Below, one piece after another: positions 10,665 to 47,384 of a stretch of 64,000 bases of DNA (the first letter of the stretch is position 1; each line of letters opens with the position of its first letter). The stretch comes from Gardnerella leopoldii (GTDB lineage Bacteria; Actinomycetota; Actinomycetes; Actinomycetales; Bifidobacteriaceae), in the NCBI RefSeq assembly GCF_003293675.1, contig NZ_CP029984.1, positions 868,043 through 932,042 on the forward strand, given 5' to 3'. The notes below the pieces were generated by a model, which was not told the DNA's origin, searched no databases, and was given only the letters and a program-made list of their open reading frames with translations. Position numbers and translations under genes: made by a program.

Positions 10665-11360
10665 TTACTTCACAGGAGGCAAAGGAACTGCATTTTTTGC
10701 ATCATCAACTTGAGATTCGCTATCTGAAGAACCTTCAAAGAAAGCACTATAGACATACAAAACTGCAGAATAGAAAGCAAAGCCCAAAGAAATACCAAGC
10801 AAGCCAAAAGCCACTGCATAGTAAGAAACCATCCAAGAAGGCAATGGATTAGCATGAAGAGTTGCAACAAGCGGTGCAATAATCATTGCAATACCAATCG
10901 ATTGCGTAAGAGTCTTATACTTTCCTGCAGAAGATGCAGCAATTACTCTTCCACGAACATTAACAACATAAATTCGCACAAGAGTAATAGCAATTTCGCG
11001 AATCATGAACAAGATGGTTATCCACCAATAAATTTCGCCGAAAACAGAAGCAATAATAAGCGCAGCTAGAATAAGAATTTTATCCGCAATTGGATCAAGT
11101 AACTTACCTAATTCTGTAACCTTATGATATTTACGAGCCATCCACCCGTCGAGCTTATCCGTAGAAGCAGCTACGACAAACAGCACAAACGCAGCCCAAC
11201 GCAACGAAACTGAATCAAAACCCCACGTACCTGCTTTCAAATATAAAACAATAAAAACAAGCGAAAGCACGATACGGATATAAGTCACAATATTTGGAGC
11301 ATAATTCCAGCCAGCAAAAAATGATGACTTAGCTTTTTTCTTCATACGCATAACCTTCAT
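10665..11360 (-). CDS. pgsA: CDP-diacylglycerol--glycerol-3-phosphate 3-phosphatidyltransferase
   Basis: It makes phosphatidylglycerol phosphate, the first committed step to phosphatidylglycerol. The CDP-alcohol phosphotransferase signature is complete (DGWMARKYHKVTELGKLLDP followed by IAD), with four or five hydrophobic segments. The N-terminus is short and basic; NIVTYIRIVLSL is the typical start of the first membrane helix. An internal ATG at 11343-11345 has GAAGG eight bases upstream and may be the true start (MKKKAKSS). It lies immediately downstream of ftsK, an order common in actinobacteria. PG made here is the likely substrate of the LtaS-like and MprF-like enzymes at 32-38 kb. Confidence 0.93.
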   Translation of the reverse strand: MKVMRMKKKAKSSFFAGWNYAPNIVTYIRIVLSLVFIVLYLKAGTWGFDSVSLRWAAFVLFVVAASTDKLDGWMARKYHKVTELGKLLDPIADKILILAALIIASVFGEIYWWITILFMIREIAITLVRIYVVNVRGRVIAASSAGKYKTLTQSIGIAMIIAPLVATLHANPLPSWMVSYYAVAFGLLGISLGFAFYSAVLYVYSAFFEGSSDSESQVDDAKNAVPLPPVK

Positions 11361-11423
11361 TCTACTGCAAAGTAAAAACTTCTAGCACACACAACTTGGT
11401 GTTGTACACAACAATACAATATC

Positions 11424-14123
11424 TTATAACGAATCTGACTCGCCACGAATAAAAGCCAAAACTTTTGGCAAATCTTCCGGTTGAACCAAAACTTCGCGAG
11501 CTTTAGAACCTTCAGAAGGTCCCACGACGCCTCGAGATTCAAGCAAATCCATCAATCGACCTGCCTTTGCAAAACCAACGCGCAACTTACGCTGAAGCAT
11601 TGAAGTAGAGCCAAATTGCGAGCTGACAACAAGCTCAGCAGCCTGAAGCAACTCATCCATATCGTCGCCAATATCGCTAGTTTTAAGCTTGCTTTGAGCT
11701 TGAGCATCCGCTTTTTGAGCCATTTGCTCAATATCTTCACGATACTTTGGTTTACGCTGCGTGCGAACATACTCCACAGCCTTGCGGATTTCAGATTCAC
11801 TCACCCACGAACCCTGCACACGTTGAGGTTTTGCAGCACCCATTGGAAGGAACAAAGCGTCGCCTTGACCAATCAAAGTTTCTGCACCAACAGTATCGAG
11901 AATAACCCTTGAATCAGTAGCAGACGAAGTAGCAAAAGCCAAACGAGAAGGAATATTTGCTTTAATCAAGCCTGTTACAACGTCAACAGACGGGCGCTGA
12001 GTAGCTAGAACCAAATGCACTCCTGCAGCTCGAGCAAGCTGAGTAATACGCTGAATAGAACTTTCAACATCGTTCTTAGCAACCATCATTAAATCAGCCA
12101 TCTCGTCCACAACCACAAGCAAATACGGGTATGGAGCAACTTTTCGCTCAGATCCAGCCGGTGCGTGAACCTTTCCTTCACGAACAGCCTTGTTGAAATC
12201 TTTAACATGACGGAAACCAAAGAATTGCAAGTCATCGTAGCGAGCATCCATCTCTTTAACAACCCACTCAAGAGCCTGCGCAGCCTTCTTAGGATCCGTA
12301 ATAATCGGAGTAAGCAAATGCGGAATGCCAGCATAAGCAGAAAGCTCCACGCGCTTAGGATCGACCATAATCATGCGAACTTGTTCAGGAGTTGCTCTCA
12401 TAATAATCGAAGTAAGCATTGAATTAATAAAACTCGACTTACCAGAGCCGGTAGCGCCAGCAACAAGCAAATGCGGCATTTTATCGAGAGCTGCAGTTAC
12501 GAAATGACCTTCAACATCTTTTCCAACACCTGTAAGCATAGGATTAGGGTCATTCATAGCTTTTTGCGAGCGCAGAACATCTCCCAAATGCACAATTTCG
12601 CGGTCGACGTTTGGAATTTCAATACCAATAGCAGACTTTCCTGGAATTGGCGACAAAATACGCACATCCGTACTAGCTACAGCGTATGCAATATTTTTTT
12701 GCAAATTCGTAACTTTTTCAACTTTTACACCAGGACCAAGCTCAACCTCGTACTGCGTAACAGATGGTCCTCTAAGGAATCCAATAACGTGAGCGTCGAC
12801 GTCAAATTGCTCAAAAGTAGAAGTTAGCGCGCGAATAACGTTATCGTTTGCTGGAGTTCTCGCAGCATGAGGCTTGCCATGAGCTAAAAGATTCAAATCA
12901 GGGAGCTTGTAAGGTTCAGAGAAAGAATCAAAAGAAGGCTCATTATTATTGCCAGCACCATTTTCGCCGTCTGCAGCATTTTCATTATCTGAATCTTCCT
13001 GATCCCTGCGATATTGATCCATACGTTCAGCTGGAATACTTGACCATGGATCGCTTGCAGATAAAGAGGAATCACTCATAGGAGCTTTTGGCAATATTTC
13101 TTCAGGAACAGGCTTTGATGAAGATGAAACACTTCTAGGTGTAAGTTGACTCGAATTATTATCAGCATCTTCAAATTGGGAATTATTTGCAGCATTATTA
13201 TCGGAAGAGCTGCTCACAGTTCTTGCTTTACGAGGTTCAACTCTTTCAAGATTATCTACACTATTACCGTGAGAAGCAGCATGCGAAAATGCATCATCGC
13301 CGGCGTATTCGTCAAGCAATTCCCCATTATTATTACTGTTTTTACGCTTAAAGAATGATTTAAACAGTTTCAACACAGAAGACATTTGAGAAGATCCGCT
13401 ATTATTTTTCGACGACTCTTCATTGTGAGTTGGCACGCCATCTGCAAATTCCAAAGAATTGGTTTTGCTGTCAGAATTATCTTCTTCAGAGTTTCCTAAA
13501 TCTTCAGAAGATTTTTTACTGTTATATTTAGCAAAAATAGTAGCAACACCTTGAGCTATATCAGTTACATGAAGGCGAGTAATCATTAATATCGAAAAAA
13601 TAGCAGCTACTACAAAAATAATAATTGCAAAAATACGAGAAAGACCCCACGATAGCGGAGATCCGAGTACAAAACCTAATAACCCACCTGACTTCTGCAC
13701 AGTGTCTAAATTAAATGCTTTTCCGCGAGGCGCAGAAGAAATATCAAGAATTGAGCAAACAGATAACAATAGAATAATAAATCCGCTAATAACACGAGGA
13801 TTACCAGAGCCAGCTCCACTGTTACGCATCAACCTAAAAGCGACAACGCTTAACCATACAGGCAGAACAACGCTCATAATTCCAAGCAAACTAGAAGACA
13901 CAAAATGGAGACCTACTCCAATAAATCCACTAACTCTAAACCATTCTGATGCGCAGAATAAAATCGCAAGAACAAGCATAACGAAGCACAAACCGTCTCT
14001 GCGATATGCCTCATCGTATTCTCCAACACCAAAAAGCGAGCGCACTAACTTTCCTAAAGTTCTAGGCACAAACAGGAGAATTGTCTCCCATAATGGTTCA
14101 CTAGGTGAAGCCTTACCAGCCAT
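11424..14123 (-). CDS. ftsK: DNA translocase FtsK/SpoIIIE
   Basis: This septum-anchored ATPase pumps chromosomal DNA into daughter cells. Membrane helices occupy roughly residues 15-185. A long Ser/Asn/Asp-rich linker (about 200-420) follows, then the motor: Walker [16 protein letters not shown] (around 550), Walker [18 protein letters not shown], and [17 protein letters not shown]. The last 70 residues ([20 protein letters not shown]) are the winged-helix gamma domain that reads KOPS sites. AGAAGGAG lies five bases before the ATG. The 899-aa length and asparagine-rich linker are normal for this family in low-GC relatives. Confidence 0.96.
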
Positions 14124-14331
14124 AAATACTCCTTCTGCACCATGTGCTATTTAGTACGCCATGTCATCATCAACATACATATGCGTAACCATACCAGTCT
14201 ACTCCATAGACTGAGGTTATTTAAATGAACCAATTACCGCTTACTCTAATGCTAATATGATGCACATTCCTCAAGTATTTCATCAACTGATAAATCGCTG
14301 ATATATCACTTCTTTCTTTCACAATAAGCAA

Positions 14332-15369
14332 TCATGCATTTATTTTCCTACAAATATGCATTCCTTGCGGCGCAATATTATTATTACGACGTTTTCGAAC
14401 TATAGCAATAATCATTGTGGCAAGAACTACCGCGCAACTTATCAATGCTATAAGGAACATAGTCATCCAGAATGGCCACTGAAGATGATCTTCTGGAGCA
14501 TGCGCTGGGTCCGGCAGCACGCGATACCCCGTCACTAGCAATCTATGCGAGTTAACACCATACGGCGTACATGTAAGCAAAGTCGCTAAATCGCGACCCT
14601 TTTCTCGCTGCAACAAACTAATATCATGCGGGTCTACAACGCTAATGCGAAACACCCTATAGCGCATTGTATAGCCCTGTACATCAATGTAGAAGTAGTC
14701 TCCACGCTTCATATCGATTAAACCGTCAAACATGGTTGCTGTAGGCAAACCAGTATGAGCTGTGATAACAGTATGCCTGTTTTTGCCGCCCACTGGCAAA
14801 TCTGTGCCATACAAGTGCCCTGCTCCGCGAGCTAGAACATCGCGCGAAGCACCATGATAAATCGGTAGTTTTACGCCTATTTTTGGGATTTTTATGATTC
14901 CCATAATTCCCATTGGTTCGTCTAGTTGTTTGATATATGACTTATAGTCTGCTGTTTTTTTGTAATTGTCACTACCATCATACGGATCGGCTGTAAAAAT
15001 TTTTTTTCTGCGCGCATTGTATTTTCGCGCACTTTTTAGAATAGATTGTCGCACGCTAGCGGCTTGATTATAAGTTACTTTGTCGTAATCTATGGAAATT
15101 TGTTTAGACACGTGATTATTCCACAGTGTTGATGCCACTGGGTAGGTGAAGCATAGAATTGCAGCTAGTGCCAAAATAATTGGTTCAACAACGCATTTAA
15201 AAACAGATTTTTTGGGATTTGCAGAATCTGAGTCTGCAGAAGATTCGTTTGCAGACGATTCGTTTGCAGACGATTCATTGGGAGTGGATTTAAGAATATG
15301 TAAGCCTGCTAATCGCACTAATCTCTCTAAGCTGCTGCGGCAAGCTTTTGCAAATTTAGTAAAACTCAT
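14332..15369 (-). CDS. Class C (pilus-assembly) sortase
   Basis: This transpeptidase cross-links pilin subunits through their LPXTG motifs. Catalytic residues are visible: His in HTVITAHTGLP (around 201), Cys in ATLLTCTPYGVNSHR (around 266) and Arg shortly after. There is a membrane helix near residues 55-75 and a second at the C-terminus followed by RKRR, the class C arrangement. Residues about 30-46 are a short SSANE pentapeptide repeat encoded by 15-bp DNA repeats. It is last in the tip-pilin-sortase unit, behind a hairpin that may limit its expression. Length is 345 aa. Confidence 0.93.
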   Translation of the reverse strand: MSFTKFAKACRSSLERLVRLAGLHILKSTPNESSANESSANESSADSDSANPKKSVFKCVVEPIILALAAILCFTYPVASTLWNNHVSKQISIDYDKVTYNQAASVRQSILKSARKYNARRKKIFTADPYDGSDNYKKTADYKSYIKQLDEPMGIMGIIKIPKIGVKLPIYHGASRDVLARGAGHLYGTDLPVGGKNRHTVITAHTGLPTATMFDGLIDMKRGDYFYIDVQGYTMRYRVFRISVVDPHDISLLQREKGRDLATLLTCTPYGVNSHRLLVTGYRVLPDPAHAPEDHLQWPFWMTMFLIALISCAVVLATMIIAIVRKRRNNNIAPQGMHICRKINA

Positions 15370-15392
15370 ACATCCACTTCCAAAAAGTAAAA

Positions 15393-15425
15393 CAGGGGGC
15401 TAAGCAAATACCGCCCAACCCCCTG
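15393..15425 (-). terminator. Hairpin terminator/attenuator between the pilin gene and the sortase gene
   Basis: On the minus strand CAGGGGG pairs with CCCCCTG across a 19-base loop and is followed by TTTTACTTTTT. It is 34 bases after the pilin stop and 24 bases before the sortase start. Partial read-through would give much pilin and less sortase. Confidence 0.7.
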
Positions 15426-15458
15426 AGTTTTTTATAATATATTTACGTTAGAAGAATA

Positions 15459-17195
15459 CTAAGCGCGCTGCTTATCTTCTTCTTTGCGATTGTTACGAGT
15501 GTAAATAAACACGCTTGCAGCAATCAAAACAATGCCAGCAATAGCGAAAATAAACACGCCGTAAGCACCGGTCTTTGGAAGCTTGAACCAGTGGTCGATG
15601 CTATTGCTCGTTGGAACATCAGCAATCGGAACTTCAAGCGATTCAGTATCGCTTGCTTTAGCAGTATTCACTTCATGAACATCTTCTGAGCGAACATAAC
15701 CTTTTGGAGCATTAACCTCAACAAGATAAATCTTGCTATTCTGATCAGTAGTCTTGACAACATAATCAGAAGTCTTACCGTCAGTGCCAGTTGTAGTGAT
15801 GGTAGAAGTTCCTGCAGTAGTGGCAGCAGCAGCAAAGCCAGGCATAGCACTATTGCAATTATTTCCACTTGGATCCTTTGCACACTTTACAGCTTCAGTT
15901 TTATCAGCAAACGCCTTGAACTCTGCTCCAGAAAGAACTGTCTTCTTCGAGGTATCAGTGCCGTCATACTTCAAGATATGGAACTTGTGGAATACAGTAT
16001 TGGTATCGTTACCAGGTGTATCCTTGCCGCTGTCTCCGCCTGGGTTAAAACCATACTTGTTGGTAAGTGTAGTCTTTACACTTTTTGTACCAAAATCGCT
16101 CTTAATCTTAAGATTCAAAGTTACCTGAACTCGAATATCCTTACTAGCGTACACTTTAGAATCTGTTCCAAACGCGTTAGCAATTTTAGCTAAACCAGAA
16201 TCTTGGAATGTGAACAGAATGCGCTTACGAGTATTATCCTTAGGCGTATTAGTACTATCACTTACACTAAAATCATTAGCTGCTTTAGTTAACTCAACAG
16301 CACCCTGCTTCAAAGCTTTAGTGCTGGAATTGTACTCACCAACGTAAACCTTATAATTACTTACAGTATCACCAAACTTGTCAAGGTTGCTATATGCGGA
16401 TATTAACGCATCATCCCAAACCTTAAAGCCTTTGAAATTAGAGTTTGCTAACTTATTGTTATCCATTGCAGGTGTTAGTGGAAGCTTCACCTTAGCGGTA
16501 ATCACGTATGGAAGCGTGTCTCCATCGCCTACCATCTTGCTAGTTTGAGCATCCTTAGTAATACCACCATTAGCATTCCAGTTCTTTGGAGAAACGCTTA
16601 CATCATACGTATAAGTGTTGGCAGTTGCTTTATCTTCACGCGTAATTTGCGGAACAGTTATAAAGAATGGAGTAAACTCAGGGCTATATCCTGTTGGCAC
16701 TTTAGTTTCCTCAACGTAGTACAAGCCGATTGCAAGATTATCGAACTTTGCAACGCCTTTTTCATTACCAACTGTTTTCGTGTCTTGGTTCATCTTGCCA
16801 TTAGTGCCAAATTTGTCATCAAAGCCGACTTTGGTAGTATTACCAGCTTTTGCAGCTTCGTTAAGTTCCTTAACTTTAGAGGCAAGCTTAATCCAATCAT
16901 CTTGCTTAGTAAGATCAGGAACAGCAGCGCTATCAATCGTACTAACCTTCTGAATTGTAAAGGTTGCACCGTTAAGACCAACAGGTGTACCAGAAGTATC
17001 ATCCTTCTTATGAATGGTGATAGTACCAGTCAGCTTCTTACCAGCTTCAGACCAAGGTGCGGGCTTAGCAGCTTCAGCACTTGGACTATTAGCAAATGCT
17101 ACGTTGTTTGCCACCACAGCACCGGCAACGCACAGCGTGCCAGCCATTGCGAGCGAGGCGAATGCCGCCACGCATTGTTTAGTGAATTTGTTCAT
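15459..17195 (-). CDS. LPXTG major pilin (fimbrial shaft, isopeptide-domain type)
   Basis: This is the shaft subunit of a sortase-assembled pilus. A Sec signal ends after NNVAFA. A pilin motif is seen as YTYDVSVSPKN (family W/YxxxVxVYPK), whose Lys should form the intersubunit bond. Two E-box segments (GLYYVEETKVPTGY and YLVEVNAPKGYV) indicate Cna-B/SpaA-like domains with isopeptide bonds. LPKTG is near residue 540, then a hydrophobic helix and RKEEDKQRA. I place the start at the ATG at 17193-17195 because AAAGGA is six bases upstream; the open frame extends 11 codons more. It lies between the tip adhesin and the sortase. Confidence 0.92.
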   Translation of the reverse strand: MNKFTKQCVAAFASLAMAGTLCVAGAVVANNVAFANSPSAEAAKPAPWSEAGKKLTGTITIHKKDDTSGTPVGLNGATFTIQKVSTIDSAAVPDLTKQDDWIKLASKVKELNEAAKAGNTTKVGFDDKFGTNGKMNQDTKTVGNEKGVAKFDNLAIGLYYVEETKVPTGYSPEFTPFFITVPQITREDKATANTYTYDVSVSPKNWNANGGITKDAQTSKMVGDGDTLPYVITAKVKLPLTPAMDNNKLANSNFKGFKVWDDALISAYSNLDKFGDTVSNYKVYVGEYNSSTKALKQGAVELTKAANDFSVSDSTNTPKDNTRKRILFTFQDSGLAKIANAFGTDSKVYASKDIRVQVTLNLKIKSDFGTKSVKTTLTNKYGFNPGGDSGKDTPGNDTNTVFHKFHILKYDGTDTSKKTVLSGAEFKAFADKTEAVKCAKDPSGNNCNSAMPGFAAAATTAGTSTITTTGTDGKTSDYVVKTTDQNSKIYLVEVNAPKGYVRSEDVHEVNTAKASDTESLEVPIADVPTSNSIDHWFKLPKTGAYGVFIFAIAGIVLIAASVFIYTRNNRKEEDKQRA

Positions 17196-17428
17196 ATTCA
17201 TTCCTTTCATAAATGCTGTTTCCAGCAATTAAAAGTTTTGAAATTTTGATGTAAGTATGTAATTGTTTATCGGTTTTAACCGAATTTCGAATTATTCACG
17301 CAATTTGCTCATAAATGAGTAAATTTTTTAAGTTTAGGAATATTATGTTGCAATATCACGCTCCAAAATTCCATGAGATTTTGCATCAAAAACACGCACA
17401 TTAAAAACATGCACCCAGTAGAAAAGCT

Positions 17429-20400
17429 TCATACGAGTCGCCACCTTCCAAGCAACTCGTGACCGCGCTTAGTTTGATCCATTACAAACACAGCAGCAAT
17501 CAAACTAGACAACATCGCAGAAACAACGCACAAAGACGCATTCCAGCCGCATCCGCCGGTCTTTGGCAGCGCGAATGGTTTCACAACGTGAATCATGAAA
17601 GTCTTAAACTCGTAATCTTTACCCCTGATGTACTGATCACCGTAAACTTCATTCAACAAATCATATTTAGCACCATGATGATTACTCATACCATCAAAAG
17701 ATTTCTTAGCTTCTGGTTTCAAAGCCCAAGCAACGCACTGATAGTCACCAGTTTTTTCTGGAATACCATCGAGCGTAGCAGTAGTACGTTGAGCAGCATC
17801 GAACGGATTATTCAGATTATCCTTAGCGTTATAGCTATACAATTTATGCTGCGCGTTGCAATTAGAATTATTCTTACATTTCTCACGCTCGGAGTACGTA
17901 TCAATATGACTCCATGTAATTGGATTACTTGCTTTCATACCCGCAAGTTTTGAAACAAAATCACGGTCATCATTTTCGCATAAAACTTCCAAGCCTATTT
18001 TCTTCTCAGTTTTATTACCACTATTCCACACGTCTTTTGTAGACCAAGCATCAATAAACGGTCTATGCATAAGACTCATGCCACTCATAATGGTAAGACC
18101 GCTACCACTTCCAAACTGACCATCAGCATCACTAATATCAGGCGCGTCAGGAGAATCTGACCTTAGCACTCGAAGCTTTATATCATCGCCTTCCATAGGA
18201 TCCACTGTCACTTGCGCGTACACTGGATTTGGTTTACTTATGCCATCTCCATTACCAGCATCTTTATCCGTAGACTTTGAACCGTCCGGATAATGTACGA
18301 TCACAGGAATTTTATACACGCCAGGCTTCTGCCACTTAAGCGGCTTAAAAGACATCACTCCATAGTGAGAACCATCACCCGTACCATGGTTTTTACCAGT
18401 CTTCCCACCATCGCTAGGCTTATTGTCTTGACCATTATCATAGAAAGACATTCCATAAGGATGATCCTTATCCTTCTTATACCAACCAGGATTATCTTTC
18501 TTATACTGGTTTCCATCAAACTCGAACCAAGTGCCGTCTGGAAGTGCGCCTTCTTCTATATCATCCTGATGAGTAGCATTATTAGCGCCTTTCTTACTCG
18601 TAGGCACATCAGTAACATTCTTATAACCGTTAGTAAGGCTTGCATGATATTCACCAGCCTTCACTTTCAATGGCACGTAACTAGGATTATTCCTATGCGC
18701 GTAAGAAGCTTTAACACTAAACTTTAAAGTTTGATCATTCCAATCTTTACCCTTTGAATCCTTAGTCTCACCCTTAATACCATAATTGGCAAAGAGCATT
18801 TTCTTATAAACAACACTTCCGCCAGTGTCATTGACAATTATGTCATCGAAATTCTTAAGACTAACAGCATTGTTAAAAGCAAACACGCGACACTCGTACT
18901 TACCGCTTTTCCTAGGCGTTCCAGTAATAATCGCGCGAGAACGAGCCATAGTATTCGTGTTGTACTCATCTTTAGTTAAATACGAGTACTTAAAATCATT
19001 GAGATTACAGTTTTTATTATTCCTGCACTTGTTTTCTTCGTCTTCCGTAGCAATCTTCCATTGACGAAAAGCTGTAAACTTTAATCCGTTAACTTCACCA
19101 ACAGACTTGTTTTTCGCTTCATCCCATTTAAGAAGCGTATAATTATCCTTATTTTCTTCGTGGCAAATAGCGCGGAATGTAATCGGAGACTTATTATTCG
19201 AAGACCACGCGTCAGGTATAAGAAGCTTACTACCATCTATCTGCTTATCTTTATCAAGATTCGTGTAATGATCCGTATGATACGAACCATAAGTAATACG
19301 GTCGGAATAGTTACTACCGAAATCGTGCATACCTGCACCCTCAGCAATAGAAAGACCTAAATCGTTATTGCCTACAGTAAGTGGCGTTACTTTAACGTGA
19401 GCATAAACCTGCCCATTATCCGTACTACTTGAGCCATCAGGATAGTGAGCAATTACAGGAGTATCGTAATTATTAGGATCTTGAGGTTTGCTCGGAGTAA
19501 AAGTTACCTCACCAATATTAGCATTAGTCATTTTTGACCAAGAAAGCACTGGTTTAGAATATTTATTACTCTTACCAAGCTCAAACCTAGTACCTTTCGG
19601 AAAATCGCCTTTAGTAATCCCCTCGTTTTTTGGAACCGACATAATTGATTTTCCAGCTTGCACCTGTTTTTTATCATAATCTGGATACACAGGCTTATAA
19701 AAATGAGACATAGGCCAAACTTTGAATTTAGCGACAACCGTCTCTGAAAAAGGCTGAGGATGATTACAGTTGTAGTTACTTGGATTAGGATAAGTTACCT
19801 TAATCGGTATATAAACTGTATGATTCTTATGCGAGTCTGCCGGGTTAAAATACACTTTACCTGTAGACTTGTCAATCCACGCATGACCTTGTTGTAAAGG
19901 CTCTGGCTTCGGACTATTAGGATCATCAAAAGTAACTTGAGCATTGGATCCCTTATTGTTATCAAAATAAGCGTTACCATCAATAGAATAAGTAAGATTC
20001 TTAGGAATATGATTGTACAGCTTACCTCTTTTACCGTCACTGCCATAATCAGGAACAAAACTACCCTTATTATTGTGGTAATCATCATAACTCTCTTGCC
20101 AATGACCATCATCAGTATAAGCTCTCACAGAAGAAGATTCACGAGGCTGTGAATCCTCCGACTCTTCAAAATGCAATCCACCAGGCTTATTCGGATCGGT
20201 ACTATTATCCCACTCCACGTTATCTGGTATGCCATCACCATCGTGATCATAAGGACCATAAGTTGCATAATCACGCTCATGAGACTCAGCATTAGTAGCC
20301 TGATATCCAGCAATAATAGGCATGTAACGAATATCAGTACCATCTGGCACATCTGCAGTAATAATCCAACGGTAGCAAGTCGTAGAATTAGCACTCTCAA

Positions 20401-21265
20401 ACGAACGCAGCATTATACCAAAGTCGCCATTGTCATGCCACTTCTTTATCTCGCATAAACTATATTTCTTCGTAAAATCACGCGCTGTAGGATCAGTATC
20501 CTGATTATACCCACAGCCAAAATGACCATTACCAACAGTATCTTCCCACTGATCATTAAAATCGCTATTACCATACGTATAATGCCAACGAGAAATCGTC
20601 CGAGAAATTTTCCCCCAATACTTATCCCAAGTTTTCATTGTTTCTGGGATGCCTCTATCATTCTGAGTTGACCAGACATTCCACTTCTTCTCGTAAACAT
20701 TTCGCCTATCTCTTTGCACTCTAATAGTGTCCGCAATAAGCTGTTTCGGAAGATCTACATAAAAAGTAGGTCGCGCTGGAATACGCTGTCTAGGCTGAGG
20801 ATTTAACTTCTCCTTAAAAGCATAGTTAAAATATATTTCATACTTCACATGAGTACCATTAGAGTCTTTGGTAATACTTGGCTCAATATCCATATTTTCA
20901 ACAGCATTACCAATACCATTACCATTAGCAGTAAAATATCCATGGCCAGCATATGACCACATAACCTGCGCAGCGCTTGCAGGCTTAGCTGGCACAACGA
21001 GAACAGCAAGAATAGTCGCCACGGCAACAATCAACGCAAGAGCCGCGCGACGAATGTAATACAATTTAGAAGCGCTAGCAATAGAGCACCCTTTAGTGCA
21101 CCTTTTAGATTTTTGTAAAGTTACAGAACCGTTAACATCATCAAGCGCATGATGACAATTCATAAAACTACAAGTTATACGTATAAGGTTAGAGAAACAG
21201 CCGTGAAGCCGTGACATTCTAACGCCTCGATTTCTTAAAAATCTAAAAGCTGCTCGAATACTCAT
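17429..21265 (-). CDS. Large LPXTG surface adhesin, probable pilus tip protein
   Basis: This is a 1278-aa wall-anchored protein. A secretion helix is at residues about 70-97 (ALIVAVATILAVLVV...PASA), after an unusually long 65-residue N-terminal stretch. Around residue 340, DHDGDGIPDNVEWDNSTDP matches a thrombospondin type-3-like calcium site. Rib-type repeats are marked by HYPDGSSSTD and HYPDGSKSTD with AHVKVTP / AQVTVDP. Two paralogous Cys-containing domains share CKNNSNCN / CRNNKNCN and ...KTGDYQCVAWA / ...KSGKYECRVFA. LPKTG is around 1232, then a membrane helix and basic tail. It is first in the operon, as expected of a tip subunit; its ligand is unknown. Confidence 0.88.
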   Translation of the reverse strand: MSIRAAFRFLRNRGVRMSRLHGCFSNLIRITCSFMNCHHALDDVNGSVTLQKSKRCTKGCSIASASKLYYIRRAALALIVAVATILAVLVVPAKPASAAQVMWSYAGHGYFTANGNGIGNAVENMDIEPSITKDSNGTHVKYEIYFNYAFKEKLNPQPRQRIPARPTFYVDLPKQLIADTIRVQRDRRNVYEKKWNVWSTQNDRGIPETMKTWDKYWGKISRTISRWHYTYGNSDFNDQWEDTVGNGHFGCGYNQDTDPTARDFTKKYSLCEIKKWHDNGDFGIMLRSFESANSTTCYRWIITADVPDGTDIRYMPIIAGYQATNAESHERDYATYGPYDHDGDGIPDNVEWDNSTDPNKPGGLHFEESEDSQPRESSSVRAYTDDGHWQESYDDYHNNKGSFVPDYGSDGKRGKLYNHIPKNLTYSIDGNAYFDNNKGSNAQVTFDDPNSPKPEPLQQGHAWIDKSTGKVYFNPADSHKNHTVYIPIKVTYPNPSNYNCNHPQPFSETVVAKFKVWPMSHFYKPVYPDYDKKQVQAGKSIMSVPKNEGITKGDFPKGTRFELGKSNKYSKPVLSWSKMTNANIGEVTFTPSKPQDPNNYDTPVIAHYPDGSSSTDNGQVYAHVKVTPLTVGNNDLGLSIAEGAGMHDFGSNYSDRITYGSYHTDHYTNLDKDKQIDGSKLLIPDAWSSNNKSPITFRAICHEENKDNYTLLKWDEAKNKSVGEVNGLKFTAFRQWKIATEDEENKCRNNKNCNLNDFKYSYLTKDEYNTNTMARSRAIITGTPRKSGKYECRVFAFNNAVSLKNFDDIIVNDTGGSVVYKKMLFANYGIKGETKDSKGKDWNDQTLKFSVKASYAHRNNPSYVPLKVKAGEYHASLTNGYKNVTDVPTSKKGANNATHQDDIEEGALPDGTWFEFDGNQYKKDNPGWYKKDKDHPYGMSFYDNGQDNKPSDGGKTGKNHGTGDGSHYGVMSFKPLKWQKPGVYKIPVIVHYPDGSKSTDKDAGNGDGISKPNPVYAQVTVDPMEGDDIKLRVLRSDSPDAPDISDADGQFGSGSGLTIMSGMSLMHRPFIDAWSTKDVWNSGNKTEKKIGLEVLCENDDRDFVSKLAGMKASNPITWSHIDTYSEREKCKNNSNCNAQHKLYSYNAKDNLNNPFDAAQRTTATLDGIPEKTGDYQCVAWALKPEAKKSFDGMSNHHGAKYDLLNEVYGDQYIRGKDYEFKTFMIHVVKPFALPKTGGCGWNASLCVVSAMLSSLIAAVFVMDQTKRGHELLGRWRLV

Positions 21266-21268
21266 GCC

Positions 21269-21289
21269 TGTTGATTTTATGAATCAACA
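21269..21289 (-). promoter_or_regulatory. 8-bp hairpin over the ribosome-binding region of the tip adhesin
   Basis: TGTTGATT (21269-21276) and AATCAACA (21282-21289) pair perfectly with a five-base loop. On the mRNA the stem's 3' arm runs into AACAGG, three bases before the ATG. It could partly hide the ribosome-binding site, adding control to the roughly 200-base leader. Confidence 0.45.
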
Positions 21290-21473
21290 AGCATTGCCCG
21301 GGGTGCAGAACACTGCATTATCAGCAGCAAATGACGCGAAATATCACAAACCACCAAAGCAAACGTCGATACGAACGCAAGCAAGCACAATCATGCCCAA
21401 AATCAGCAGGCTAATTCACGCCAAAAACTTAAACGCAAGATAATGTAGTGCACTACTGCTAAGCACATATGTT

Positions 21474-21503
21474 GTTATACCCCCCCCCCATGAAAAATTT
21501 CAA
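21474..21503 (-). promoter_or_regulatory. Pilus operon promoter with poly-G tract in the spacer
   Basis: On the minus strand TTGAAA (21498-21503) matches five of six -35 bases and TATAAC (21474-21479) matches five of six -10 bases. Between them are 18 bases, ten of which are an unbroken G run (21480-21489). Loss of one G gives the ideal 17-base spacer. Slippage at such tracts switches promoters in other bacteria. The transcript would have a leader of about 200 bases before the adhesin. The rest of 21290-21628 holds no gene. Confidence 0.75.
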
Positions 21504-21589
21504 GTAAAATTTGCAAATTTCCTAATATTCGTAAAAATTCCTAAATTCGGGGTTATATGCGGGTTATAGGCAAAAAATATTGCAATCCA

Positions 21590-21620
21590 AAAACAAAAAA
21601 CGGCAGATATTTACCTGCCG
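21590..21620 (-). terminator. Terminator of tRNA-His
   Basis: CGGCAG / CTGCCG with an eight-base loop is followed on the minus strand by TTTTTTGTTTTT. It begins nine bases beyond the 3' end of tRNA-His and upstream of the pilus promoter. Confidence 0.85.
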
Positions 21621-21628
21621 TTCAAGTG

Positions 21629-21703
21629 GGGTGGCTAACGCGGCTTGAACGCGCGACCTTCTGAACCACAATCAGATGCTCTACCGACTGAGCTATAGCC
21701 ACC
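21629..21703 (-). tRNA. tRNA-His (anticodon GTG)
   Basis: The minus-strand cloverleaf has acceptor GGTGGCT / AGCCACC, discriminator C as expected for His, an anticodon loop TTGTGGT between TCTGA and TCAGA, and a T-loop GTTCAAGCC. The base before the 5' end is T, so the extra G(-1) of tRNA-His is probably added after transcription. No CCA is encoded. Confidence 0.94.
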
Positions 21704-21841
21704 ATGTGCGCGAAACGAATTGAATCACACAACAAAGGGATACTATACACGATTTCCTCGATTTATGCTAGCGCAACACACTTCGGCGCGTCGTAGTAAC
21801 AACATCAATTATTCGACAATGGCAAATGCAACAATGGATGT

Positions 21842-23125
21842 ATGAGTTTTTCTGAGCAAAATCAGCGCATATTTGGCGTAACTGAAAACAGTAACAACAC
21901 AACCGCGCTTCTTCTTGGATCTGGCGAGCTTGGTAAGGAAATTGCGATTGAGCTTATGCGATTAGGCGTGCGAGTATGCGCTGCCGATAGCTACAAAAAC
22001 GCTCCTGCAATGCAAATAGCTCACGAATACCACGTGCTAGATATGTCGAATCCGCAAGAATTGCAAGAACTTATTTCAAATGTGAATCCTGACATTATTA
22101 TTCCAGAAGTTGAAGCTATTGCTACTGAAGTTTTGAAAGATGCTGCTAAAAAGAATATTCAAGTCGTTCCTAGCTCAGATATTGCCGCGATTGCAATGGA
22201 TCGCGAACGCTTGCGTAGAATTGCGCACGAAGATTTAGGACTGCCTACTACACCGTATTGTTTCGCTTCATCTTATGAAGAGTTAGAGGATGGAGCTAAA
22301 AAAGTTGGATATCCTTGTGTAGTTAAGCCTGTTATGAGCTCTTCTGGTCACGGTCAGTCAATAGTTCGTAGTTCTGAAAATTTGCTTGCGGCTTGGAATG
22401 AAGCTCAGCATGGCAGGCGTGCAGCAGCTGGTCATGAGAATGAGTGTTCACGCGTTATTGTTGAAGCTTTAGCTCCGCTTGATTATGAGCTTACAGTACT
22501 TACAATAAGCTCTTGCGCAGGAATTACTACTTGTGAGCCGATCGCTCAGCGTCAGCAAGATGGAGATTATAGAGAATCTTGGCAGCCTGCAAATATTCCT
22601 GAATCGATCCGCACTAATGCGAAAGATATTGCAAAGCGCGCTGTAGAAGGTTTGACTGATATTGCGCAAGAAGCTGGCGAAACAGGTTGGGGCATTTATG
22701 GAGTCGAATTATTCGTGCTTACTGATGGCTCTTTGCTTTTTAATGAATTGTCACCTCGCCCACACGATACTGGCATGGTAACTATGATTTCGCAGCATTA
22801 TAGTGAATTTGCATTGCATGCATTGGCTATTTTGGGAGTTCCAGTTACAGCTAACTATACTGAGCTTTCTTTGAAAAATAATGAAGTTGCAGCAAGTCAC
22901 GCCATTGTTATTAAGGCGGAAGGATCTGTTGGTTTTACGAATATTGCTCAAGCTTTGCAATCTGGCGAAAATTATCGATGCAACTTGCGTATTTTTGCTA
23001 AGCCTTCTGTACATGGTCACAGACGCATGGCAGTTTCTTTAGCTACTGGATTAACGCAAGAAGAAGCTAGAGAAAATGCGACACGCGTCGCCATTTCGCT
23101 AAAAACTACACAAACAAATGCTTAG
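21842..23125 (+). CDS. purT: Formate-dependent phosphoribosylglycinamide formyltransferase
   Basis: It formylates GAR with formate and ATP, the folate-independent alternative to PurN. The ATP-grasp protein has the N-terminal LLLGSGELGKEIAIELMRLG, a central VVKPVMSSSGHGQS, and NELSPRPHDTGMVTMISQ near residue 310, then the C-terminal domain. At 427 aa it is slightly longer than usual. It is first in the purine cluster but separated from purC by 175 bases. The ribosome-binding site is weak (GGATG). Confidence 0.94.
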   Translation: MSFSEQNQRIFGVTENSNNTTALLLGSGELGKEIAIELMRLGVRVCAADSYKNAPAMQIAHEYHVLDMSNPQELQELISNVNPDIIIPEVEAIATEVLKDAAKKNIQVVPSSDIAAIAMDRERLRRIAHEDLGLPTTPYCFASSYEELEDGAKKVGYPCVVKPVMSSSGHGQSIVRSSENLLAAWNEAQHGRRAAAGHENECSRVIVEALAPLDYELTVLTISSCAGITTCEPIAQRQQDGDYRESWQPANIPESIRTNAKDIAKRAVEGLTDIAQEAGETGWGIYGVELFVLTDGSLLFNELSPRPHDTGMVTMISQHYSEFALHALAILGVPVTANYTELSLKNNEVAASHAIVIKAEGSVGFTNIAQALQSGENYRCNLRIFAKPSVHGHRRMAVSLATGLTQEEARENATRVAISLKTTQTNA

Positions 23126-23191
23126 ATACATTGAAAATTAAGGCATAGGAGTTAAAAAAGATAATAATTTACAGTATGCACGAAGGGAAAT

Positions 23192-23249
23192 TTTGTAGGT
23201 AACAATTGTTACGCTAATCGTGCTGGCAAAGGTCAGGTAAACCTACAAA
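23192..23249 (+). promoter_or_regulatory. Structured leader upstream of purC
   Basis: TTTGTAGGT (23192-23200) and ACCTACAAA (23241-23249) form a 9-bp perfect stem enclosing 40 bases. It ends about 50 bases before the purC start, in the 175-base gap after purT. I could not match it to a known purine or ZTP riboswitch consensus by eye. A leader RNA or an operator pair is possible. Confidence 0.4.
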
Positions 23250-23300
23250 TATTGTTGGTTTGCGCCTACAACTGTGAATGCACATAAGAGAGGGCATATC

Positions 23301-24083
23301 ATGGAAAAACTTGAGAAGTTGTACGAAGGCAAAGCCAAAAAACTGTATGCTACCGATGACACCAATGTGCTATGGGTTGAATACATGAACCAGGCAACAG
23401 CTGGTAACGGTCTGAAGAAAGCTCAGATTGCAGGTAAAGGCAGTTTAAATAACCGGATTACTTCGTTACTATTCCATTTACTTGAGGCGCGCGGCGTAAA
23501 AAGCCACTTCCTCGGACGAATTTCCGATACTGAACAACTTGTAAAGCGTATGCGCATGTTCCCACTGGAAATTATTATGCGAAATACTGCTGCAGGTTCT
23601 TTTGCAAAACGTTATAACATTAAAGAAGGAACACCTTTAAAGAAGCCATTGTTGGAGTTCTGCGTAAAGTCCGACGAGCTTGGTGATCCATTTATTAATC
23701 CTGAAGGCGTTGTGGCTCTTGGATTAGCAACAGATGAAGAAATAGCAGAAGTCACTCGTCAAGCTCATGCTGTTAACAATGCTTTGTTGGATATTTTCTC
23801 AAAGATTGATGTTCAGCTTGTCGACTTCAAGATTGAAGAGGGCGTGGACGCCGAAGGAAATATTCTTCTCGCTGATGAAATAACTCCTGATACTTGCAGA
23901 CTTTGGGATAAGCGCAATGCTGGTACGAACGGAGTAAGTCATTTGGACAAGGACTTGTTCAGGCGCGATTTAGGCGACATCATTCCTGCTTATGAAGAAA
24001 TTCACGATAGGCTTGCATCTTTAGCTCAAAGCGAAGGTTTGGATGTTTCTGTGCGCAAACCTGACGATTGCGTAGAACGATAA
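23301..24083 (+). CDS. purC: Phosphoribosylaminoimidazole-succinocarboxamide synthase (SAICAR synthetase)
   Basis: It joins aspartate to CAIR using ATP. The family start [16 protein letters not shown], the central [19 protein letters not shown] and [15 protein letters not shown] are all present in 260 aa. The ATG at 23301 is chosen because GAGAGGG is seven bases upstream and the family begins here; the reading frame is open for nine more codons. A strong hairpin separates it from purL, so expression of the two may differ. Confidence 0.96.
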
Positions 24084-47323: not shown

Positions 47324-47384
47324 AAAATATGTTAGTGTAACTTTGGGTCAAACATGTGACCTATATCACAAAATACCCCCCCCC
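47324..47384 (-). promoter_or_regulatory. Promoter region of the small LPXTG gene with CRP-like palindrome and poly-G tract
   Basis: On the minus strand TTGACC (47346-47351) and TATTTT (47324-47329) are 16 bases apart. Just upstream, TGTGA-CCTATA-TCACA (47355-47370) is a perfect CRP/GlxR-type site, roughly 45 bases before the expected start. Directly upstream again is a run of nine G (47376-47384). A weaker alternative promoter could use TATTTT right after the G run. Confidence 0.6.

What the first reader, a model, noticed from the sequence alone, without database searches (positions are those of the whole stretch)
21474..21503. Poly-G tract inside the pilus operon promoter: likely on/off phase switch
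Seen: TTGAAA and TATAAC on the minus strand, 18 bases apart, with ten consecutive G in the spacer, about 200 bases upstream of a tip adhesin-pilin-sortase unit. Known: in Neisseria, porA and opc promoters vary by slippage of a G or C run in this position, changing spacer length and strength. Inferred: nine G (17-base spacer) would be strongest, ten intermediate, others weak, so the whole pilus could switch.
Basis: partly seen in the sequence, partly recalled or inferred. Interest (0 to 1): 0.88.

Follow-up and report, generated by a model that had tools for sequence, protein, structure and literature searches.

The report
Poly-G switch promoter of Gardnerella pili
A run of ten Gs sits in the middle of the likely promoter of a hair-like adhesion fibre (pilus) in a Gardnerella-type vaginal bacterium, and related bacteria carry the same arrangement, with runs of differing length, in front of most of their pilus genes, so these fibres are probably switched on and off by chance DNA slippage.

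Summary
In detail: minus strand 21503-21474 reads TTGAAA, 8 nt, 10 G, TATAAC, 214 nt upstream of a tip-like protein / SpaH-type pilin / class C sortase cluster. The pilin is 99% identical to a Gardnerella entry. The reading as a promoter-spacer slippage switch is well supported by comparison; variation within a clone and expression were not measured. In 12 related genomes, 36 of 40 sortase loci have a same-strand run of 8 or more G upstream; of the 35 with a pilin beside them, 32 do, and the other 3 are cut by gaps or contig ends. In 22 of 23 clean sites of the similar sortase type, TTG lies 7-8 nt before the run; in 23 of 23 TA follows directly; the run varies from 8 to 13. The run was outside the first open frame in 31 of 31 sites, unlike the intragenic pilus G-tract of Bifidobacterium breve. 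Operon and promoter form a 7.3-kb insert absent there in 7 of 7 relatives examined. That nine G is strongest is not supported. The mechanism is of the porA kind, and variable Gardnerella tracts are already published; the pilus promoter anatomy was not found in my searches.

The parts
21498..21503 (-). -35 element TTGAAA
   Evidence: Sequence; TTG at 7-8 nt before the run in 22 of 23 clean sites of the similar sortase type in relatives
21480..21489 (-). G10 tract, the proposed slippage site, in the promoter spacer
   Evidence: tract 8-13 G at related sites
21474..21479 (-). -10 element TATAAC, abutting the tract
   Evidence: Sequence; TA directly after the run in 112 of 181 clean runs, 8.8% expected; no T at position 6
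21533..21542 (-). AT-rich block AGGAATTTTT upstream of the -35; possible UP element or regulator site
   Evidence: AGNAATTTTT in 8 of 11 aligned tip promoters, looser in the other 3; function inferred
17429..21265 (-). Tip-like LPKTG surface protein, 1278 aa, RibLong/YPDG repeats
   Evidence: role as tip adhesin inferred from order and size
15459..17228 (-). Major pilin, SpaH/EbpB family, LPKTG; listed start is TTG, real start probably one of the ATGs just downstream
   Evidence: NF033902 over cut-off, PF17802, PF16555, 99% match named Gardnerella pilin, sequence
15393..15425 (-). Terminator-like hairpin with T-rich tail between pilin and sortase
   Evidence: 4 such sites found in the region, 2.0 expected by shuffles
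14332..15369 (-). Class C sortase, TLLTC active-site motif
   Evidence: NF033745 over cut-off, PF04203, motif
14245..21587 (.). About 7.3 kb insert between ftsK and the tRNA-His terminator, holding operon and promoter; ends approximate
   Evidence: Absent at this place in 7 of 7 relatives examined, of 12
21598..21623 (-). Terminator-like hairpin after tRNA-His (tRNA 21702-21627), upstream of the pilus promoter

Best explanation
21503-21474 (minus) is the core promoter of a Gardnerella sortase-pilus operon, and most of its spacer is a poly-G tract. Replication slippage adds or removes a G, changes the -35/-10 distance (18 here), and so raises, lowers or shuts off transcription of the tip-like gene and probably of pilin and sortase, giving a clone with mixed states. 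Shown: the anatomy, the operon's identity, the recurrence in relatives, fixed flanks with varying run length, and a position outside the first gene. Inferred: that the site is an active promoter, that the length varies within a clone, that expression follows length, and that the whole operon follows.
For: Motif absent from 100 of 100 shuffles. Run lengths in relatives peak at 10, not at the minimum. Of 181 clean runs 112 are directly followed by TA (8.8% expected). TTG lies 7-9 nt before the run in 64 of those 112 against 4 of 69 others; one per context cluster 18 of 49 against 4 of 48, p = 0.0013. 36 of 40 sortase loci have a same-strand run upstream; about 7% expected per 12 kb. In the similar sortase type TTG at 7-8 nt in 22 of 23 clean sites, TA in 23 of 23, run 8-13. 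Run outside the first open frame in 31 of 31 sites scanned. MutS1 in 0 of 12 relatives (11 of 14 controls ring), NucS in 12 of 12. A Gardnerella tract of 9 bp was 10 bp in 1 of 10 and 2 of 9 colonies (PMC11287997, section 11).
Against: No reads, strains of this species, transcript start or expression data were available. The -10 lacks T at position 6 and the generic scan misses the site. In the less similar sortase type, 1 of 6 clean sites has TTG at 7-9 nt and 5 of 6 have TA, so a run upstream of a pilus does not always come with this promoter form. 69 of 181 clean runs are not followed by TA. One of 40 sortase loci (no pilin found beside it) has no same-strand run in the stretch fetched. Assembled lengths of such tracts can be wrong (PMC9187656, passage).
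Confidence: 0.75

Rival explanations
1. It is the promoter, but the tract sets a level that differs between lineages and does not usefully switch within a clone.
For: Length differs between species at related promoters; no within-clone data here.
Against: Another Gardnerella tract varies between colonies of one streak (PMC11287997); MutS1 was not found in 12 of 12 relatives; several draft genomes break or carry N at such runs, which fits mixed lengths but also plain sequencing trouble.
Confidence: 0.14
2. The tract is a binding site or structural element of another kind (regulator site, DNA structure) and the -35/-10 likeness is incidental.
For: A shared AT-rich block upstream suggests some further factor; the less similar sortase type has the run without the -35.
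Against: The -35-like and -10-like flanks are kept at fixed distance to the run in 22 of 23 sites and across unrelated contexts (18 of 49 clusters against 4 of 48).
Confidence: 0.07
3. The tract switches a reading frame, as in the Bifidobacterium breve pilus loci.
For: B. breve pilus loci work this way (PMC9187656, section 15); an ATG overlaps the first G of the run in the window.
Against: In the window the tip frame opens after a stop 196 nt beyond the run, and the run was outside the main downstream frame in 31 of 31 sites; the overlapping ATG is not kept in all 11 aligned promoters.
Confidence: 0.02
4. The run length, or the run itself, is an assembly artefact.
For: Homopolymer lengths in assemblies can be wrong by a base or so (PMC9187656, passage); the window's own reads and assembly are not held.
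Against: Runs of 8-13 G recur at the same place in independent genomes; only the exact number ten is open.
Confidence: 0.02

Closest known systems
Neisseria meningitidis porA poly-G promoter
   Same: Poly-G between -35 and -10; surface protein; graded expression by tract length in porA (11G > 10G > 9G; PMC3639595, passages)
   Different: Unrelated phylum and gene; expression effect not measured here; the tract here precedes a multi-gene sortase-pilus cluster and recurs at most pilus loci of the relatives
Bifidobacterium breve intragenic G-tract pilus switch (bbr_0113, bbr_1889)
   Same: Same family of bacteria, sortase-dependent pilus clusters, G tract at the head of the operon (PMC9187656, abstract, passages, section 15)
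   Different: There the tract is inside the first gene and shifts the frame; here it lies before the first gene, in a promoter spacer. The B. breve authors mention promoter-spacer tracts elsewhere in that genome without detail
Variable homopolymer tracts of Gardnerella (Garcia et al. 2024)
   Same: G/C tracts of 8 or more, about 70% within 300 bp upstream of ORFs, often of Rib or LPXTG proteins; one shown to vary by Sanger sequencing (PMC11287997, sections 11 and 12)
   Different: A term search of the main text shows 0 uses of 'spacer' and 'pilin' and 1 of 'promoter' by word start; the -35/-10 placement and the pilus-wide pattern are not described in what I saw. Supplements were not open to me
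SpaH/EbpB-type pilus operons with class C sortase
   Same: Pilin NF033902 and sortase NF033745 over their cut-offs, tip-like LPXTG protein first
   Different: Ordinary in composition; the G-tract promoter is the distinguishing feature

Membership tests
Promoter-spacer homopolymer phase switch (porA kind) | Homopolymer between -35 and -10 elements | tested here: met
Promoter-spacer homopolymer phase switch (porA kind) | The site is an active promoter with a mapped start | not testable with these tools
   No RNA data
Promoter-spacer homopolymer phase switch (porA kind) | Tract length varies reversibly within a clone | not testable with these tools
   No reads or sibling strains; between species lengths run 8-13
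Promoter-spacer homopolymer phase switch (porA kind) | Expression depends on tract length | not testable with these tools
   No expression data
Bifidobacterium breve-type intragenic pilus G-tract | G tract inside the coding frame of the first pilus gene | tested here: not met
   Outside the main downstream frame in 31 of 31 sites, window included
Bifidobacterium breve-type intragenic pilus G-tract | Linked to a sortase-dependent pilus cluster | tested here: met
Gardnerella long homopolymer tracts | Run of 8 or more, within 300 bp upstream of an ORF | tested here: met
   Run of 10, 214 nt before the ATG
SpaH/EbpB pilus operon with class C sortase | Pilin and sortase over curated cut-offs, cell-wall sorting signals | tested here: met
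   NF033902, NF033745; LPKTG in tip-like protein and pilin
SpaH/EbpB pilus operon with class C sortase | Pilin-motif lysine used for polymerisation | tested here: inconclusive
   The few simple patterns tried (recalled) gave no match in the pilin

The most novel reading that the evidence does not exclude
Gardnerella puts nearly all its sortase pili, and a second family of paralogous secreted surface proteins, under separate slippage-prone promoters of one common design (-35, 7-9 nt, G run, abutting -10). A clonal population would then be a combinatorial mix of surface coats, and the switch travels with the pilus operon when the operon enters a new genomic site.
Probability: 0.55. Interest if true: 0.72.

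Novelty: new member of a known kind. Interest (0 to 1): 0.52.

Why it matters
Gardnerella adhesion and biofilm are thought to start bacterial vaginosis, and its colony variation has no agreed genetic cause (PMC11287997, sections 11-12). A promoter-type switch at most pilus loci would add hidden, readable heterogeneity: tract lengths could be read from deep sequencing of colonies or samples. It would also show two bifidobacterial relatives reaching slippage-controlled pili by different placements of the G tract, inside the gene in B. breve and in the promoter in Gardnerella.

Tried and rejected
Intragenic frame switch: rejected. Leader peptide from the ATG that overlaps the run: not kept in all 11 aligned promoters. 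RNA element: Rfam at gathering threshold finds only the tRNA in 11000-24000; the tip-pilin gap folds no better than shuffles (z 0.53). A scan of named genomes with the PurK-like neighbour returned 80 loci, 16 of them Bifidobacterium and none Gardnerella, and did not help. The 355-nt upstream region as DNA matched 2 of 59 genomes only; protein-led searches were needed. Strain-level comparison was not possible: no collection open to me holds several strains of this species and the metagenome cap is 0. A spacer-length paper search gave nothing; the Gardnerella-pilus-poly-G search gave 3 papers that looked unrelated by title and abstract start and were not opened. Pfam of 10 proteins behind other runs of genome G131 gave families for 4 (Metallophos, aRib, ACPS, DUF3800), none for 6.

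Rows dropped or corrected: of 41 sortase rows I used 40 (the 41st lies in the same open frame as a used one). Of 213 runs 32 near N or contig ends were left out of the statistics. The search pattern misses runs preceded by N or a contig end: of 7 sortase loci first counted as misses, 3 have a run at such an edge, 3 are cut (G113:C2 N gap, G133:C1 contig start, G015:C17 contig start), 1 has none (G133:C11). One of the 35 sites and of the 31 (G132:C14:76883) is not the nearest run to any sortase and is left out of the recount. Five of the 40 sortase loci have no pilin match beside them. The empty-site test used 7 of 12 genomes.

Full report
OBSERVATION. Minus strand 21503-21474 reads TTGAAA, TTTTTCAT, ten G, TATAAC; the spacer is 18. 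A run of ten appears in 1 of 100 shuffles of the window and the wider motif in 0 of 100. G/C runs in the window stop at 5 and restart at 9 and 10, so the run does not look like the tail of a random distribution.

SURROUNDINGS. Downstream on the same strand lie a 1278-aa LPKTG protein with RibLong/YPDG repeats, a SpaH/EbpB major pilin, a class C sortase, then ftsK. 'Tip adhesin' is inferred from order, size and repeats. The pilin's best match is 99% identical over 98% and named a Gardnerella pilin. The window's own assembly is not held. Upstream are a terminator-like hairpin and tRNA-His on the minus strand, then a purT/purK-like gene, a purC-like and a purL-like gene on the plus strand.

INSERT. 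In 7 of 7 relatives examined (of 12), ftsK and tRNA-His lie about 0.15-1.2 kb apart, too close to hold the operon; in two of them (G001, G113) the tRNA/pur flank is about 97% identical to the window. The window thus carries about 7.3 kb here, roughly 14245-21587, with the operon and its promoter. Some 40-50 nt of the empty site differ at the junction, so it was not a clean cut; how it happened is unknown. The two promoters nearest in sequence (G010, G131) are 67% and 69% identical over about 300 nt and have 11 G where the window has 10.

GENUS-WIDE PATTERN. Relatives of the tip-like protein occur in 12 of 112 genomes of the GTDB genus, each of 1.5-1.8 Mb. In these 12 genomes 212 places with 8 or more G were listed and fetched. 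Of 181 clean runs (two of them the window's; 32 of 213 dropped near N or ends), 112 are directly followed by TA against 8.8% expected. A TTG lies 7-9 nt before the run in 64 of those 112 and in 4 of the 69 others; counting one per cluster of similar contexts, 18 of 49 against 4 of 48, p = 0.0013. Over the 12 genomes lengths peak at 10 (12 of 8, 60 of 9, 83 of 10, 37 of 11).

PILUS LOCI. Of 40 sortase loci in the 12 genomes, 33 have a same-strand run 2.3-10.2 kb upstream of the sortase and 3 more have one at an assembly gap or contig edge. Of the 35 with a pilin match beside the sortase, 32 have a run and 3 are cut by gaps or contig ends; of the 5 without pilin, 4 have a run and 1 has none. In the type whose sortase is 57-76% identical to the window's, 22 of 23 clean sites have TTG ending 7-8 nt before the run (18 at 8, 4 at 7), 23 of 23 have TA directly after it, run lengths go from 8 to 13, and spacers are 16 (1), 17 (7), 18 (6), 19 (6), 20 (1), 21 (1); the window (8 nt, 10 G, 18) fits. 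The odd one is G080:C9. In the type at 34-37% identity, 5 of 6 clean sites have TA but only 1 of 6 has TTG, so these may work otherwise. In 31 of 31 sites scanned (window included) the run lies outside the main downstream open frame. Eleven aligned tip promoters share an AT-rich block upstream of the -35: AGNAATTTTT in 8, looser in 3.

MECHANISM. MutS1 was found in 0 of 12 relatives while 11 of 14 control genomes ring; NucS was found in 12 of 12; the window's own genome could not be tested. That NucS does not mend homopolymer slips is recalled, not tested. Published: a Gardnerella tract of 9 bp was 10 bp in 1 of 10 colonies of one strain and 2 of 9 of another (PMC11287997, sections 11-12); B. 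breve pili depend on an intragenic G-tract, and its authors mention promoter-spacer tracts without detail (PMC9187656, abstract, passages, section 15); B. dentium pilus clusters also have poly-G stretches, described there as upstream of the first gene (PMC12104195, passages); porA surface expression falls from 11G to 10G to 9G (PMC3639595, passages). Slippage in the spacer that grades or switches transcription is therefore the best reading.

REACH OF THE SWITCH. The tip-pilin gap is 200 nt by the listed starts and shows no terminator-like and no minus-strand promoter-like site in the simple scan, which would also miss the promoter under study; the pilin-sortase gap is 89 nt with a 15-pair hairpin and a T-rich tail. 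Tip and pilin probably switch together; the sortase may be partly uncoupled. This is inference.

NOVELTY. Known kind, new place. In seven searches of the held papers and the passages read I found no description of promoter-spacer G-tracts at Gardnerella pilus operons. Most subscription papers and all supplements were out of reach; a Gardnerella sialidase slippage paper was not held and is known to me only through a citing review (PMC11868660, passages). Two more Gardnerella papers were seen as passages and do not treat this promoter there (PMC12519793; PMC12095359).

Noticed in passing
window 47376-47384 (minus), ORF 47271-46618: The window's second long G run (9) lies just upstream of a small LPNTG protein whose signal peptide closely resembles that of a paralogous surface family; in the 12 relatives 29 clean runs of the form TTGACTTTT...[9-11 G]TAT precede genes with this signal peptide (NKKAIAA in 29 of 29). 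A second slippage-prone surface family.
   Followed up: partly
L130, L145, L300 and similar loci: A recurring run of 8-11 G with conserved flanks (8 clean cases); in the one case checked (L300) the main open frame begins inside the run, so it may be an intragenic switch. Gene not identified.
   Followed up: no
L116, L125, L180, L298 and similar loci: Another recurring context, CCCTTGAAATAAAAGGCTT[11-15 G]TATGTAT or TACTATAG, upstream of proteins without a Pfam match in the two checked.
   Followed up: partly
L129, L132, L256, L258, L260-L262, L265, L367, L376: Draft assemblies often carry N stretches or contig ends exactly at the G runs, so surveys of tract length from draft genomes will under-count them.
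   Followed up: partly
window 15393-15425 (minus): Strong hairpin with T-rich tail between pilin and sortase, perhaps lowering sortase relative to pilin.
   Followed up: no
12 relatives: MutS1 not found in 12 of 12 and NucS found in 12 of 12, a setting that may leave homopolymer slips unrepaired (inference).
   Followed up: partly
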